Assembly: GCF_003605475.1 (NCBI RefSeq)
Contig: NZ_RAHX01000001.1
Span: 1,860,001-1,924,000 of the forward strand
Reading direction: 5' to 3'
DNA from: Aurantiacibacter aquimixticola
Lineage (GTDB): Bacteria; Pseudomonadota; Alphaproteobacteria; Sphingomonadales; Sphingomonadaceae
Length of the DNA stretch: 64,000 bases
In this document: positions 38,541 through 51,894 of the stretch, piece after piece
Numbering within the stretch: the stretch's first letter is position 1
How the letters are laid out: each line of letters opens with the position of its first letter
Made by a program: the position numbers and the translations under genes
Notes under the pieces: model-generated
Told to the model about the DNA's origin: nothing
Seen by the model: only the letters and a program-made list of their open reading frames with translations
Databases searched by the model: none

Positions 38541-39227
38541 TCACGTCGTCCAGAGTGGAGATTCCAACGATTCCAGAAAGGCCGCATGCCGCGCAAGCTC
38601 TTCCGCACTTGCGGCATGCGGACGCGGAGCGCGGTACTCGCCGATCTGCGGGCGAAACACGGTCTCAACCTGCTGTTTTTCGCCGACGTTCTCACTGGCG
38701 AGCTCAAGACCGATCTGCCGACCGCCCGTCAGCTCGACATACACCTGTGCGAGCAATTCCGCGTCGAGCAGCGCGCCGTGCAGCACTCGATGCGACCGAT
38801 CGACTCCGTAGCGCGAGCACAGCGCGTCGAGCGAATGCTTCGCACCAGGATGGCGCCGCCGGGCAATCGCCAGCGTATCGACCATGCGCTCGTCGCCGAT
38901 CGTCAGCTGCTCGCAAATGGTCAGTTCGCTGTTGAGGAAGCCGAAATCGAATTGCGCATTATGTGCGACTAGTGGGGAGTCGCCGAGAAATTCCAGCAAG
39001 TCGGCGACGCTGTCCCGGAAAAGGGGCTTGTCGGACAGAAAGCTCGCGGAGAGACCGTGCACCTTTTCGGCTTCCGCAGGCATGTCGCGTTCTGGATTGT
39101 AATAGGCGTGGAATGTGCGCCCGGTCGCAACGCGATTGACCATCTCGATGCAGCCGATTTCAACCATGCGGTCACCGGTAGCGGGGTCGAGGCCGGTCGT
39201 TTCGGTATCGAAGATGATTTCGCGCAT
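38541..39227 (-). CDS. dnaQ: DNA polymerase III epsilon subunit (proofreading exonuclease)
   Basis: 228 aa DEDDh exonuclease. Motif I is [14 protein letters not shown], motif [16 protein letters not shown], motif [20 protein letters not shown]. Removes misincorporated bases in the replisome. The C-terminal tail after about 185 includes the region that binds the alpha subunit. It is followed on the plus strand by no gene; coaE precedes it on the same strand. Confidence 0.94.
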
Positions 39228-40711: not shown

Positions 40712-41289
40712 CGCGGCAACTCGCCGAAATCGCGCAGCGCGCCGAGCACGGCAAGAAGCGGCATGCCGAGCACGGTGAAATGGCTGCCCTCGATCCGCTC
40801 GAAGAGCTGTATGCCGCGCGCCTCGATCCGGAAAACCCCGACGCAGTAGGACACTTCGGGCCATTCCGCGTCGAGATAGGCGGCAATGAAATCCCCGGAA
40901 AGCTCTCTAACCTGCAAGCGCGCCACATCACCGTGCCGCCACGCCGTTTCGCCACCGTGGGCGATGGCGGCAGCGGCGTGCAATTCCATCGTCCGGTCGG
41001 AGAAGAAGCGCAGGTGCTCCGCCGCCTCCGTGCGGCTGCGCGGCTTGTCGAAGCGGCGGCCATCGACGACGACGAGCGAGTCGCTTCCGAGAACCGGGCG
41101 TTTTTCGTTCTTGATCGCCAGCGCCTTCGCCTCCGCCAGAGCGAGAGCGATCTCAGCGGGCTCCGCACTTTCGAGCCGCGCTTCTATCGCTCGCTCGTCC
41201 AGATTGGCCGGGCGCGCTTCGAAAGCGACACCCGCATCGCGCAGCATGGCCTGGCGCGAGGCGGATTTCGATGCGAGCACGATGCTCAT
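40708..41289 (-). CDS. maf: Maf-type nucleoside triphosphate pyrophosphatase
   Basis: 193 aa. Signature [20 protein letters not shown] at the N-terminus, [16 protein letters not shown] with the catalytic aspartate region, and the C-terminal [15 protein letters not shown]. Hydrolyses non-canonical nucleotides (house-cleaning). It overlaps ppsR and aroE by 4 nt each. Confidence 0.94.
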
Positions 41290-42131
41290 ATCGGTTTGGC
41301 ACCGAAACGCGGCTCGTCCGTCTCCGCCTCGCGCTCCTGATGCAAGCGGATGACCGCCGCTGCGGTCTCCTCGATGGAGCGGCGCGTCACGTCGATCACC
41401 GGCCAGCCATTGTCGGCGAACATGCGACGGGCGAAAGCGACTTCCTTCTTCACTCGCTCCTGATCGACATAGGATGTCTCGGTATTCTCGTTCAGCGAAA
41501 GGAGTCGGTTGCGGCGGATCTGGATGAGCCGGTCGGGCGCAGTGGTCAGGCCGACGACCATCGGTTTGCGCAGGCGGAACAGGCTGTCGGGTGGCGGGCT
41601 TTCCACCACCAGTGGGATGTTGGCCGTCTTGTAGCCGCGATTGGCGAGGTAGATGGCGGTCGGCGTCTTCGACGTGCGCGACACACCCGCCAGCACTATG
41701 TCGGCCTCTTCCCAATTGTCCCAGCCGATCCCGTCATCATGGGCGATGGTGAATTGGATGGCGTCGACGCGCGCGAAATAGGCCTCGTCCATCCGGTGCT
41801 GGCGTCCGGGACGGCCCTTGGCTTCCTGGTCGAGCCTTTCTTCCAGCGCCTCGGTCACCGTTTCCAGCGCGTCGGCATATTTGATACCGATTGCGCGGCA
41901 CCGTTCCTCCAGCCCTTCGCGAATATCCTCATTCACCAGCGTGTAGAGGACGAGGCCGGGATTGGCCTTGAACTCTTCCATGATCCTGTCGAGATGCTGG
42001 CGCGAGCGGACCATCGGCCAGAAATGGCGCACCACGTCCTTGTCATCGAATTGCGCGAGCGCCGCCTTGGCGATCATCTCGAGCGTTTCGCCGGTGGAAT
42101 CCGACAGGAGGTGGAGGTGCAGTCTGGCCAT
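41286..42131 (-). CDS. ppsR: PEP synthase / pyruvate-phosphate dikinase regulatory protein (DUF299)
   Basis: 281 aa kinase/pyrophosphorylase. N-terminal [24 protein letters not shown]-loop-like [18 protein letters not shown], and [18 protein letters not shown]. It switches PEP synthase or PPDK on and off by phosphorylation. ATG 42131 is chosen by homology; the frame continues upstream into the candidate origin without similarity. In the alphaproteobacterial origin cluster this gene type lies on one side of oriC and hemE on the other. Confidence 0.93.
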
Positions 42132-42433
42132 GTGGAGAACCCGGCGCATAAACCACGGGAGCGATTGGCGGACAAGTCGGGGACGGAATTTCGCCCCCGC
42201 TACCAGCCGATTCGCCCGCAGCGCCATCTCTCCTAATGGGATTCTATGCGCAGGCTGTGTGTAGCGTGGAGAAGCTTTTCTTGACGCGGCAAAGCAACGA
42301 GTCGATGCCGCCGCAAACGGCTTTCGGCGGAAAAGGATTCCGGTGATTGTGGCTTTTCCCCGCAATTCACAGGGCCAACAGACAACAAGAATCTTATCTA
42401 AATATATTATATTATTGATTGGACCACTTCTCG
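42132..42433. other. Candidate chromosomal replication origin (oriC), ppsR-hemE gap
   Basis: 302 bp without a gene, divergent between ppsR and hemE. It contains five GANTC sites (42209, 42240, 42299, 42336, 42389). An AT-rich run at 42390-42419 has 3 G/C in 30 in a very GC-rich window. DnaA-box-like sequences are TGTGGAGAA (42131-42139, one mismatch to TGTGGATAA), CGTGGAGAA (42265-42273, two) and TTATCTAAA (42394-42402, two). The Caulobacter origin is also beside hemE. No perfect DnaA box and no TTAA-N7-TTAA CtrA site were seen. The hemE and ppsR promoters must also lie here. Confidence 0.55.
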
Positions 42434-43450
42434 ATGGCCGGACATCTTCTTGAAAACCTGCGCGGGACGCGAACCGAAAAGCGTCCGGTCTGGCTGATGC
42501 GTCAGGCGGGGCGCTACCTCCCCGAATATCGCGAATTGAGGGCGGAGAAAGGCGGCTTTCTTGAGCTGGTCTATGACAGCGAGGCGGCGGCCGAAGTTAC
42601 GCTGCAGCCTATTCGCCGTTTCGGTTTCGATGGCGCAATCCTGTTTTCCGATATTCTCATCGTGCCGCATGCGTTGGGGCAGGATCTGTGGTTCGAAGCG
42701 GGCGAGGGGCCGCGACTGGCCCCGCCATTGGTCGATGGCGCCTGGCAGAAGCTGGAAAAGGCCTTCCATCATTTTGCGCCTGTCTGGAAGACGGTCGAGC
42801 TTACCAAGGCGAAGCTCGATGACGATGTCACCATGCTCGGCTTCATCGGCTCTCCGTGGACGGTGGCGACGTACATGGTCGGCGGGCAGGGATCGAAGGA
42901 TCAGGGGGCGGCGCGCGCACTGGCCTGGCGCGATCCCGAAGCGTTTCAGTCCTTGATCGATGCGATCGAGGCGGCGAGCCTTCAATATCTCATCGGTCAG
43001 ATCGATGCAGGCGCGGAAGCGGTGCAGCTTTTCGACAGCTGGGCCGGATCGCTCAGCCCGTCGCAATTCGAGCGTTGGGTGATCGCGCCGAACGCGCGGC
43101 TCGCCGCAGCCATCCACGAAAAGCGCCCCGGCATTCCGGTGATCGGCTTTCCGAAAGGGGCGGGCGCGAAGCTTCCGGCCTATGCGCGGGAGACGGGCGT
43201 CGATGCGCTCGGCGTCGATGAGACGCAGGACCCGGCCTGGGTCGCATCGCATATACCTCCTCAGATGCCCGTACAGGGCAATCTGGACCCGATGCTGCTG
43301 CTTGCGGGGGGTGAGCCCCTCGACGCCGAGATCGAGCGCATATGCGCCGTTTTCGAGGGCAGGCCGCATATCTTCAATCTGGGCCACGGGATCGACAAGC
43401 ACACGCCGATCCCCCATGTCGAGCGCCTGCTGCAAAAGCTGCGCGGTTGA
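42434..43450 (+). CDS. hemE: Uroporphyrinogen decarboxylase
   Basis: 338 aa from ATG 42434 (an in-frame TTG at 42419 is less likely). Signatures RPVWLMRQAGRYLPEYRELR near the start, ILFSDILIVPHALG, GFIGSPWTVATYM and the C-terminal FNLGHGIDKHTPIPHVERL. Converts uroporphyrinogen III to coproporphyrinogen III for heme. It lies directly beside the candidate oriC, with an AT-rich stretch immediately upstream that probably doubles as its promoter. Confidence 0.96.
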   Translation: MAGHLLENLRGTRTEKRPVWLMRQAGRYLPEYRELRAEKGGFLELVYDSEAAAEVTLQPIRRFGFDGAILFSDILIVPHALGQDLWFEAGEGPRLAPPLVDGAWQKLEKAFHHFAPVWKTVELTKAKLDDDVTMLGFIGSPWTVATYMVGGQGSKDQGAARALAWRDPEAFQSLIDAIEAASLQYLIGQIDAGAEAVQLFDSWAGSLSPSQFERWVIAPNARLAAAIHEKRPGIPVIGFPKGAGAKLPAYARETGVDALGVDETQDPAWVASHIPPQMPVQGNLDPMLLLAGGEPLDAEIERICAVFEGRPHIFNLGHGIDKHTPIPHVERLLQKLRG

Positions 43451-48602: not shown

Positions 48603-48618
48603 TGTTTCACGTGAAACA
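48603..48618. promoter_or_regulatory. parS site 1 (perfect consensus)
   Basis: TGTTTCACGTGAAACA, a perfect 16-bp palindrome identical to the classic ParB-binding parS consensus. It begins at the base after the mnmE stop and lies 39 bp before the mnmG ATG. ParB encoded at 51891 should load here. Confidence 0.92.
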
Positions 48619-50504: not shown

Positions 50505-51121
50505 TCGAGAGCGAGGATGAGGCGCGCGCTTATTGTGCGGCGCGGTGCGATGATCGTGCAATGGGTCTGCTCGAGCGCTTCGTGCACGCGTTGTGTGAAG
50601 AGAACGGCCGTCAGAATTTAATTTCGAAGGCCAGTGTCAATCATGTCTGGCAGCGCCATATCGCCGACAGTTTGCAGCTTGTCGATCACGCGCCGCAGCG
50701 TAGGGCGTCATGGCTCGACCTCGGATCGGGACCGGGTTTGCCCGGCATCGTCATCGCTATCGCCCGGCCCGATGTTGAAATGCATTGTGTAGAATCAAGG
50801 GCGAAACGAATCGCTTGGCTGGAGCGCATTTGCGTGCAGCTCGACCTCGAAAACTGCCTCGTGCACGGTCGGCAACTTGAACGTGTGGAAAGTCGGGAAA
50901 TGGACGTGATCACGGCGCGGGCCTTCGCCCCGCTTGCCAAATTACTCGACTTATCCGAGCGGTTTTCCACACCGGCCACCGTATGGTTGTTGCCGAAAGG
51001 CAGGTCGGCAGCGCAGGAATTGGCTGAACAGCCGAATCATGTGCGCGGCATGTTTCACGTGGAACAGTCGATGACAAGCGCAGATGCTGCCATCTTGGTC
51101 GGCAAAGGGAGGATCCCATGA
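50501..51121 (+). CDS. rsmG: 16S rRNA 7-methylguanosine methyltransferase RsmG (GidB)
   Basis: 206 aa. SAM motif [38 protein letters not shown] and [15 protein letters not shown] are characteristic. Methylates G527 of 16S rRNA. The C-terminus encodes MFHVEQ, the translation of the parS sequence inside the gene. It overlaps mnmG upstream by 4 nt and parA downstream by 4 nt. Confidence 0.95.
51051..51066. promoter_or_regulatory. parS site 3 (within rsmG)
   Basis: TGTTTCACGTGGAACA, one mismatch (G for A) to the parS consensus. It lies in the last 25 codons of rsmG, 52 bp before the parA start. ParB bound here could also repress parAB. Confidence 0.88.
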
Positions 51122-51894
51122 TCGTTATTGCGATTGCAAACCAGAAGGGCGGCGTCGGAAAAACGACGAGCGCAATCAACATTGCAACGGCGATGGCGGC
51201 CAGTGGATGGCGGACATTGCTGCTCGACCTCGATCCGCAAGGGAATGCCTCGACCGGACTAGGCATTCCGTCGGCAGACCGTGACGCGTCTAGCTACGAC
51301 GTAATAGTGGACCAGGCGGCGATCGCGGATTGCACGATCCGCACGACGATCCCCGGCCTCGATGTCTGTCCTGCCACGGTCGATCTTAGTGGAGCGGAAG
51401 TGGAGCTCGTCGGTGTCGAGGATCGATCGCAGCGCCTTCGTGAAGCTTTCGACGGTCACACTGGCCATGACATATGTTTCATCGATTGCCCGCCATCGCT
51501 CGGTCTCCTGACGCTAAACGCTCTCTGCGCGGCGGACACGCTACTCGTGCCTTTGCAATGCGAATTTTTTGCGCTGGAAGGCCTCAGTCAGCTTCTGCAG
51601 ACGGTCGAGCAGGTTCAGCAGCGCTTCAATCCCGATCTCGGCATTATCGGCATCGCCCTGACGATGTTCGACCGTCGCAATCGCCTGACAGACCAGGTCG
51701 CAGACGATGTGCGCGAATGTCTCGGCGATCTCGTTTTCGAGGCGGTGATCCCGCGAAATGTTCGCCTTTCGGAAGCGCCGAGCCACGGCTTGCCCGCGCT
51801 CATTTACGACAATTCCTGCATGGGCAGCCGAGCTTACATGGCCTTGGCGCGCGAACTGATCGGACGACTGCCGGCAGAAAGGATTGCAGCATGA
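51118..51894 (+). CDS. parA: Chromosome partitioning ATPase ParA
   Basis: 258 aa, small chromosomal type without N-terminal HTH. Deviant Walker A IANQKGGVGKTTSAINIATA at residues 6-25; Walker A' LLLDLDPQGNASTGLG; Walker B CFIDCPPSLGLLTLNA. C-terminal RNVRLSEAPSHGLPA is typical of chromosomal ParA/Soj. Moves ParB-parS complexes toward the pole. Overlaps rsmG and parB by 4 nt each. Confidence 0.97.
   Translation: MIVIAIANQKGGVGKTTSAINIATAMAASGWRTLLLDLDPQGNASTGLGIPSADRDASSYDVIVDQAAIADCTIRTTIPGLDVCPATVDLSGAEVELVGVEDRSQRLREAFDGHTGHDICFIDCPPSLGLLTLNALCAADTLLVPLQCEFFALEGLSQLLQTVEQVQQRFNPDLGIIGIALTMFDRRNRLTDQVADDVRECLGDLVFEAVIPRNVRLSEAPSHGLPALIYDNSCMGSRAYMALARELIGRLPAERIAA

What the first reader, a model, noticed from the sequence alone, without database searches (positions are those of the whole stretch)
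42132..42433. Candidate chromosomal oriC between ppsR and hemE
Seen: a 302-bp non-coding gap with an AT-rich patch (42390-42419, 3 G/C in 30) in a very GC-rich window, and DnaA-box-like sites TGTGGAGAA (42131), CGTGGAGAA (42265) and TTATCTAAA (42394). Established: the Caulobacter crescentus origin lies beside hemE, and related alphaproteobacteria keep a cluster of this gene set around it. Here maf-aroE-coaE-dnaQ and ppsR lie on one side and hemE-hemJ-rho on the other. Inference: this is oriC. No perfect DnaA box was found.
Basis: partly seen in the sequence, partly recalled or inferred. Interest (0 to 1): 0.75.

Follow-up and report, generated by a model that had tools for sequence, protein, structure and literature searches.

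The report
Chromosome replication origin beside hemE
This stretch is almost certainly the place where a sphingomonad bacterium starts copying its chromosome, as in other alphaproteobacteria, but in this family it also carries an unusual cluster of DNA-methylation sites that may help to time replication.

Summary
In detail: a 302-bp non-coding gap (42132-42433) between ppsR and hemE, with the AT-rich patch and near-DnaA boxes as stated. The oriC reading is well supported: the local cumulative GC-skew minimum lies 3.2 kb away; 35 of 40 genome samples have the skew sign expected for this origin; the genome's only two parS matches lie 6-9 kb away; dnaA is 338 kb away; 106 distinct family gaps (this one included) keep 293-494 bp with DnaA-box-like sites and an AT-rich end. 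Such origins are already described for sphingomonads. What my searches did not show described is a cluster of CcrM methylation sites (GANTC): 5 here, 556 against 169 expected in the 106 gaps, first of 256 gapped patterns, with positions that turn over, while CtrA sites are absent. A CcrM-type domain is found in 59 of 59 family genomes, and a perfect DnaA box lies upstream of ccrM in 21 of 30 examined. This suggests a DnaA-CcrM loop that gates initiation. Against it: outside the family the enrichment is weak and does not track CcrM, and in Caulobacter CcrM is not required for initiation control. All evidence is computational.

The parts
42132..42433 (.). oriC: ppsR-hemE intergenic gap, 302 bp, 53.6% GC in a 63.3% GC window
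   Evidence: homologous gap in 106 distinct sequences (this one included), 293-494 bp, median 329
42131..42139 (-). DnaA box 1 (TTCTCCACA, 1 mismatch), overlaps one base of the ppsR start codon; TTATCCACA or a 1-mismatch form in 73 of the 94 more distant gaps
42244..42252 (+). eroded DnaA box position (CTATGCGCA, 3 mismatches); TTATCCACA in 18 of the 94 more distant gaps
42256..42264 (-). eroded DnaA box position (CTACACACA, 3 mismatches); 0-1 mismatch in 33 of the 94 more distant gaps
42265..42273 (-). DnaA-like box (TTCTCCACG, 2 mismatches), similar at the same place in close relatives
42363..42371 (+). DnaA-like box beside the AT-rich element (CAATTCACA, 3 mismatches; CTATCCACA or TAATCCACA in several relatives)
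42384..42419 (.). AT-rich element, candidate duplex-unwinding element (inferred)
42209..42213 (.). GANTC site (GATTC)
42240..42244 (.). GANTC site (GATTC)
42299..42303 (.). GANTC site (GAGTC); aligned site present in 70 of 106 gaps
42336..42340 (.). GANTC site (GATTC)
42389..42393 (.). GANTC site (GAATC) at the edge of the AT-rich element
42147..42175 (-). probable ppsR promoter (TTGTCC, 17-bp spacer, TTTATG on the minus strand), read by eye from a conserved block; inferred, not tested
   Evidence: conserved blocks; sequence
41286..42131 (-). ppsR (PF03618 kinase/pyrophosphorylase)
42434..43450 (+). hemE (PF01208)
48603..48618 (.). parS, exact match to the recalled consensus
51051..51066 (.). 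parS, 1 mismatch
51118..51894 (+). parA-like ORF (judged from its translation; not scanned)

Best explanation
The gap is the chromosomal origin of replication of an Aurantiacibacter-like sphingomonad. Shown by sequence: position near the skew minimum, parS close by, a family-wide conserved gap with DnaA-box-like sites and an AT-rich end. Inferred: DnaA loads on the box at 42131 and on the weaker boxes in the middle and at 42363, oligomerises towards the AT-rich element 42384-42419 and melts it, and two forks leave in opposite directions. Inferred and less sure: five GANTC sites lying between the boxes are methylated by the cell's CcrM, become hemimethylated when the origin fires, and report 'just replicated' to the initiation or promoter machinery until CcrM acts again. 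In this family GANTC rather than CtrA sites would then be the cell-cycle input at the origin. The confidence below is for the oriC claim; the GANTC part is rated in the section on the most novel reading.
For: Skew: 35 of 40 samples have the sign expected with the origin here and the terminus near 0.54 Mb (arms drawn at the skew extremes themselves); cumulative minimum at the bracketing samples, fine minimum 3.2 kb away. A KOPS-like motif (recalled consensus) splits 55:12 and 12:63 between the arms (my sums). parS only here. Gap conserved in 106 distinct sequences, with 199 boxes of <=1 mismatch against 5.3 in shuffles. In print: oriC close to hemE with conserved boxes and a putative DUE in the intergenic region of Sphingopyxis, and hemE-side oriC for most Sphingomonadaceae in DoriC (PMC4741004). 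GANTC: window gap 5 against 1.27 (P 0.004); 106 gaps 556 against 169; 30 genomes of 29 genera 150 against a maximum of 60 in 1000 shuffles; gap 15.6 per kb against 1.1-4.2 per kb in 15 of 16 flanking bins and 2.65 per kb in 431 other non-coding runs; the densest 300-bp window in about 1.02 Mb of distinct own sequence overlaps the gap. CcrM present. TTAA-N7-TTAA in 0 of 106 gaps; TTAAC/GTTAA 8 against 46 expected.
Against: No marker-frequency, footprint or autonomous-replication data. The skew is weak (5 of 40 samples have the wrong sign) and its fine minimum is not inside the gap; in relative G029 the local minimum is about 9 kb off. No perfect DnaA box. GANTC part: the 70 other alphaproteobacterial ppsR-hemE gaps show only 1.7-fold enrichment, alike with and without a detected CcrM domain (1.74 and 1.73); in C. 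crescentus CcrM is not needed for control of initiation (PMC3973325); another palindromic pattern, AGNCT, is also in excess (2.2-fold), and among contiguous 5-mers box-like words (z 16-19) are enriched as much as GACTC/GAGTC (z 16).
Confidence: 0.92

Rival explanations
1. The gap is only a conserved divergent promoter region (ppsR, hemE); the real origin lies elsewhere in the ori-proximal cluster, for instance nearer the skew minimum (38.9 kb) or parS (48.6-51.1 kb).
For: Fine skew minimum at 38912; conserved promoter-like block upstream of ppsR (by eye); no perfect DnaA box.
Against: DnaA-box-like sites 199 against 5.3 expected across the family gaps; the AT-rich maximum of the window is in this gap; published sphingomonad predictions put oriC in the intergenic region close to hemE. 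A skew minimum is not accurate to a few kb.
Confidence: 0.05
2. The GANTC cluster serves methylation-dependent transcription (GcrA/CcrM) of ppsR and hemE and has no role in initiation.
For: GANTC is over-represented in intergenic regions of alphaproteobacteria with CcrM, and GcrA reads it at promoters (PMC3973325, PMC8116508; passages); the genome has a GcrA; CcrM is not required for initiation control in C. crescentus.
Against: Density is about six times that of other non-coding runs in the same loci (15.6 against 2.65 per kb); sites are spread over the last five sixths of the gap (7.8-37.9 per kb), not only at the gene ends; ppsR-hemE gaps elsewhere in the class lack the strong enrichment.
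Confidence: 0.4
3. The GANTC excess is a by-product of one or two conserved sites (TTGACTC...GAGTC, columns 42282-42283 and 42299) shared by descent.
For: 138 of 556 sites sit at those columns; the 106 sequences are related and shuffles do not allow for that.
Against: In 30 genomes of 29 genera 110 of 150 sites remain after removing them, against 37 expected in all; other positions differ even among close relatives.
Confidence: 0.1

Closest known systems
Sphingopyxis/Sphingomonadaceae oriC beside hemE (PMC4741004; DoriC predictions cited there)
   Same: Close to hemE, conserved gene organisation around it, conserved DnaA boxes and a putative DUE in the intergenic region
   Different: The passages I saw do not mention GANTC; here the central boxes are eroded and no perfect box is left
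Caulobacter crescentus Cori
   Same: Origin next to hemE (recalled), weak rather than perfect DnaA boxes; several GANTC reported in it (PMC3973325)
   Different: No TTAA-N7-TTAA CtrA site, no TGATCCACA G-box, no TCCCCA W-box core in this gap; GANTC 4.2-fold enriched in this family against 1.7-fold in other alphaproteobacterial gaps
E. coli oriC with Dam GATC sites and SeqA
   Same: An orphan adenine methyltransferase whose sites cluster at the origin (comparison recalled)
   Different: CcrM/GANTC in place of Dam/GATC; I did not search for a SeqA-like reader
repABC secondary origins rich in GANTC (PMC6090056, PMC11514494)
   Same: Origins rich in CcrM sites in alphaproteobacteria; CcrM level affects ori2 firing in Agrobacterium
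   Different: Those are RepC origins of secondary replicons; this is the main chromosome
Origin-clustered methyltransferase motifs of Blow et al. (PMC4752239)
   Same: Same kind of signature (motif clusters at origins)
   Different: The four enzymes named there are Dam and those for TTAA, CTCGAG and CTAG/CATG-type motifs; GANTC is not among them in the passages read

Membership tests
hemE-linked alphaproteobacterial chromosomal origin | conserved gene cluster with hemE beside the gap | tested here: met
   108 of 110 loci have divergent ppsR across the gap, 2 end at or near the hemE start
hemE-linked alphaproteobacterial chromosomal origin | skew minimum at the locus | tested here: met
   (3.2 kb away); relative G029 about 9 kb away
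hemE-linked alphaproteobacterial chromosomal origin | DnaA boxes | tested here: met
   weak in the window (3 with <=2 mismatches, P 0.03); strong across the family
hemE-linked alphaproteobacterial chromosomal origin | AT-rich unwinding element | tested here: met
   (sequence only)
hemE-linked alphaproteobacterial chromosomal origin | autonomous replication / initiation in vivo | not testable with these tools
   needs an experiment
Caulobacter-type Cori (CtrA-controlled) | CtrA sites TTAA-N7-TTAA in the origin | tested here: not met
   0 of 106 family gaps; 7 of 70 other alphaproteobacterial gaps have one
Caulobacter-type Cori (CtrA-controlled) | G-boxes TGATCCACA and W-boxes TCCCCA | tested here: not met
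   none in the window gap; W-box cores in 65 and G-boxes in 2 of 106 family gaps
Caulobacter-type Cori (CtrA-controlled) | IHF site | not tested
   not searched
methylation-gated origin (Dam/SeqA-like) | cluster of orphan-methyltransferase sites in the origin | tested here: met
methylation-gated origin (Dam/SeqA-like) | cognate methyltransferase in the genome | tested here: met
methylation-gated origin (Dam/SeqA-like) | site cluster tracks presence of the methyltransferase | tested here: inconclusive
   59 of 59 family genomes have the domain, so no contrast; class-wide ppsR-hemE gaps 1.74-fold with (60) and 1.73-fold without (11); regions without ppsR 1.32-fold with (13) and 0.66-fold without (14)
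methylation-gated origin (Dam/SeqA-like) | hemimethylated origin is bound or blocked | not testable with these tools
   needs an experiment
BUS/DnaA-trio unwinding system | at least three 3'-NAN-5' trios within 16 bp of a DnaA box (rule read) | tested here: inconclusive
   run of 5 in the window, starting from TTATCTAAA inside the AT-rich element; 0.7% of 300 composition shuffles reach it, but these destroy the AT clustering; runs of >=3 in 39 of 106 family gaps against 11 of 106 shuffled, runs of 1-2 in the other 67

The most novel reading that the evidence does not exclude
In Sphingomonadaceae the main chromosomal origin is gated by CcrM methylation: GANTC sites placed between DnaA boxes become hemimethylated on firing and damp re-initiation until CcrM returns, while DnaA, through a perfect DnaA box conserved upstream of ccrM, controls ccrM. 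This DnaA-CcrM loop would do at the origin what CtrA does in Caulobacter and Dam/SeqA do in E. coli.
Probability: 0.25. Interest if true: 0.75.

Novelty: new variant of a known kind. Interest (0 to 1): 0.42.

Why it matters
As an origin the locus is ordinary for alphaproteobacteria and useful mainly for annotation. If the GANTC cluster acts on initiation, it would show another use of adenine methylation to time a DnaA-dependent chromosomal origin outside the Dam/SeqA bacteria, in a family where CtrA sites are missing from the origin and where loss of CtrA had no negative effect on growth in one member (Sphingomonas melonis; PMC8116508, passage). It would also give a reason why a CcrM-type domain is found in each of the 59 family genomes examined, and it can be tested in harmless laboratory sphingomonads.

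Tried and rejected
DnaA-trio/BUS search: inconclusive. CtrA control of this origin: no sites. dnaA locus as origin: 338 kb off, two near-boxes and no cluster. Correlation of GANTC density with CcrM across the class: looked for and not found in ppsR-hemE gaps; this counts against the methylation reading. Spearman of GANTC with TTAAC in other alphaproteobacteria: -0.18, P 0.15. Rfam (gathering threshold) and tRNA scans of the window: no hits. Repeats in the gap: only short two-copy pairs. Structure prediction, PADLOC, PHROGs, plasmid, phage and E. coli searches were not used.

Rows dropped: L086 and L114 (no ppsR; contig ends) and L107 (divergent ppsR present but match partial) before the gap count, leaving 107; one duplicate gap removed (106). 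In the class set 141 genomes (G059-G199) were searched and 120 had a hemE match; I read 98 upstream regions (60 loci of the best matches plus 38 of the 40 fetched; L249 and L250 dropped as too short), of which 71 had ppsR (one the family member G068, left out of the 70). G072 (RAMA match below cut-off) was counted as lacking CcrM. The ccrM promoter count uses the 30 best of 59 matches. In both sets of 30 family genomes two (G000, G012) share a genus label.

Full report
What is there. The window is C1:1860001-1924000 of a genome of 2,552,891 bases in two contigs (C1 2,511,056 bp). The best named hemE relatives are Aurantiacibacter marinus, sediminis and luteus (84-87% identity; Sphingomonadales), so the host is close to that genus. 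The gap 42132-42433 separates ppsR (PF03618) from hemE (PF01208); maf, aroE, coaE and a dnaQ-like exonuclease lie on the left and a UPF0093 (hemJ-like) gene, rho, mnmE and gidA on the right, followed by rsmG-, parA- and parB-like ORFs judged by their translations.

Is it the origin? Forty samples of 20 kb (the last 15 kb), 795 kb in all, give a sampled cumulative GC skew with its minimum at the sample starting at 1,856,001, just before the one at 1,920,001, and its maximum at 512,001-532,000. With the arms drawn at these extremes, 18 of 21 samples on the left arm are negative and 17 of 19 on the right arm positive. A KOPS-like motif (recalled) splits 12:63 and 55:12 on the two arms and changes strand between 532 and 576 kb (my sums). 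Over a contiguous 340 kb the minimum is at window 38912, value -701 against about -630 at the gap. In G029, the one other genome examined, samples turn from negative to positive around its hemE and the local minimum is about 9 kb from the gap. The only parS matches with up to 2 mismatches in the genome are at window 48603 (exact) and 51051 (one mismatch). dnaA is at 1,563,585 and its locus has two near-boxes and no cluster; dnaA away from ori is reported for Sphingomonadales (PMC8116508, passages).

Comparison. Of 110 hemE loci (30 from family genomes of 29 genera; 80 from named genome contigs), 108 have a divergent ppsR across a short gap and 2 end at or near the hemE start. I used 107 (L107 dropped for a partial match); 106 gaps are distinct, the window's included, 293-494 bp, median 329. 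Aligned, they show conserved boxes: 42131 (TTATCCACA or one mismatch in 73 of the 94 more distant gaps), a central inverted pair that is perfect in some relatives and eroded here, CGTGGAGAA at 42265, and a box beside the AT-rich element (42363), then the AT-rich element itself. 74 of 106 gaps have no perfect box, so the lack of one here is usual. TTATCTAAA (42394) lies in the AT-rich element and does not look conserved. Boxes of <=1 mismatch total 199 against 5.3 in shuffles. A conserved block next to ppsR reads as a sigma-70-like promoter (inferred by eye).

What was not expected. A count of all 256 patterns XYNZW in the 106 gaps puts GANTC first by z: 556 against 169 by dinucleotide shuffles (6 flanking bases on each side included, 555 without). 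In the 30 genomes of 29 genera it is again first, 150 against 44, and 1000 composition shuffles never exceed 60. Not everything points to GANTC alone: the palindromic control AGNCT is 2.2-fold in excess, and among contiguous 5-mers the box-like words CACAG, ACAGG, GTGGA and CCACA (z 16-19) match or exceed GACTC/GAGTC (z 16). The window gap has 5 GANTC (P 0.004 by dinucleotide shuffle), and the densest 300-bp GANTC window in about 1.02 Mb of distinct own sequence overlaps it (6 sites including one in ppsR). In the family gaps density is 15.6 per kb; 15 of 16 flanking 150-bp bins have 1.1-4.2 per kb, and the first ppsR bin 8.4, which I put down to a conserved coding stretch (read by eye). Other non-coding runs of >=120 bp in the named loci (crude ORF mask) have 2.65 per kb; 15 of 431 have >=4 sites, 8 of those 15 within 2 kb to the right of the gap start, against 81 of 106 gaps. 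In the own genome 208 non-coding runs of >=100 bp have 1.8 per kb. Sites avoid the boxes: 21 of 556 overlap a box of <=2 mismatches, where 16.9% of positions would. Removing the two most conserved places leaves 110 of 150 in the 29-genus set, against 37 expected for all. Shuffles do not correct for shared descent.

The enzyme. The genome has one PF01555 match and one PF18755 match, in the same ORF; its best solved relative is CcrMI (6pbd, E 4.9e-157). The RAMA domain is in 59 of 59 family genomes. The ccrM upstream region carries 5 GANTC and one of the only three perfect DnaA boxes of the genome, 15 nt before the first start codon of the frame. In 30 family genomes (the 30 best of 59) a perfect box lies from 300 bp upstream to 30 bp into the gene in 21 (24 with <=1 mismatch; 1.2 boxes expected), and all 21 perfect boxes in these 122 kb are there; GANTC number 160 against 33 expected. 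13 of 30 also have TTAACCAT, a recalled CtrA half-site, upstream; the window's genome does not. A GcrA protein is present.

Against the methylation reading. In 141 genomes drawn across the class, 71 of the 98 upstream regions read have a ppsR-hemE gap. GANTC enrichment there is 1.74-fold with a CcrM domain (60 gaps) and 1.73-fold without (11 gaps), so it does not track CcrM; in the 27 regions without ppsR it is 1.32-fold with (13) and 0.66-fold without (14). Alphaproteobacteria with CcrM have a >1.5-fold intergenic excess anyway (PMC3973325, passages). The strong form is therefore a property of this family as far as sampled. In C. crescentus, CcrM is not required for initiation control, though over-expression gives extra chromosomes (same passages).

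Literature. An oriC close to hemE with conserved boxes and a putative DUE is published for Sphingopyxis and predicted for most Sphingomonadaceae (PMC4741004, passages). Weak boxes at Cori and CtrA/IHF control are reviewed in PMC4468827 and PMC4285127 (passages). Origin clusters of methyltransferase motifs were found for four enzymes, GANTC not among them (PMC4752239, passages). GANTC-rich repABC origins and CcrM effects on ori2 are known (PMC6090056, PMC11514494; passages). Of PMC8287927 I read one section and half of another. Searches for GANTC with origins or sphingomonads (listings capped, 25 of 32 and 15 of 261 shown) and for 'ccrM promoter' with 'DnaA box' (no paper) showed me no report of either feature; that covers open-licence PMC only.

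Verdict. oriC: about 0.92. Ordinary as an origin. The GANTC cluster, with the DnaA box upstream of ccrM, is a family-wide sequence signature whose function is inferred; a methylation-gated origin with a DnaA-CcrM loop is possible (about 0.25), and a purely transcriptional role is a serious rival.

Noticed in passing
G000:C1:309309-309482 (L185, L287): Region upstream of ccrM with 5 GANTC and one of only three perfect TTATCCACA boxes in the genome, 15 nt before the first start codon; perfect box kept there in 21 of 30 family genomes.
   Followed up: partly
window 42244-42264: A central inverted pair of DnaA boxes, perfect in some relatives, is eroded here and in the close Aurantiacibacter-like genomes.
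   Followed up: partly
L088, L091, L096, L101, L135, L147, L149, about 1.4-2.0 kb right of the gap start: Non-coding runs near or past the end of hemE also hold 4-5 GANTC in these relatives, so the cluster may extend past the gap there.
   Followed up: no
106 family gaps: TTAAC/GTTAA, the core of CtrA half-sites, is scarce in the gaps (8 against 46 expected; 44 against 64 in 70 other alphaproteobacterial gaps), as if avoided.
   Followed up: partly
G000:C1:532000-576000: A change of strand of the KOPS-like motif marks the probable terminus region.
   Followed up: no
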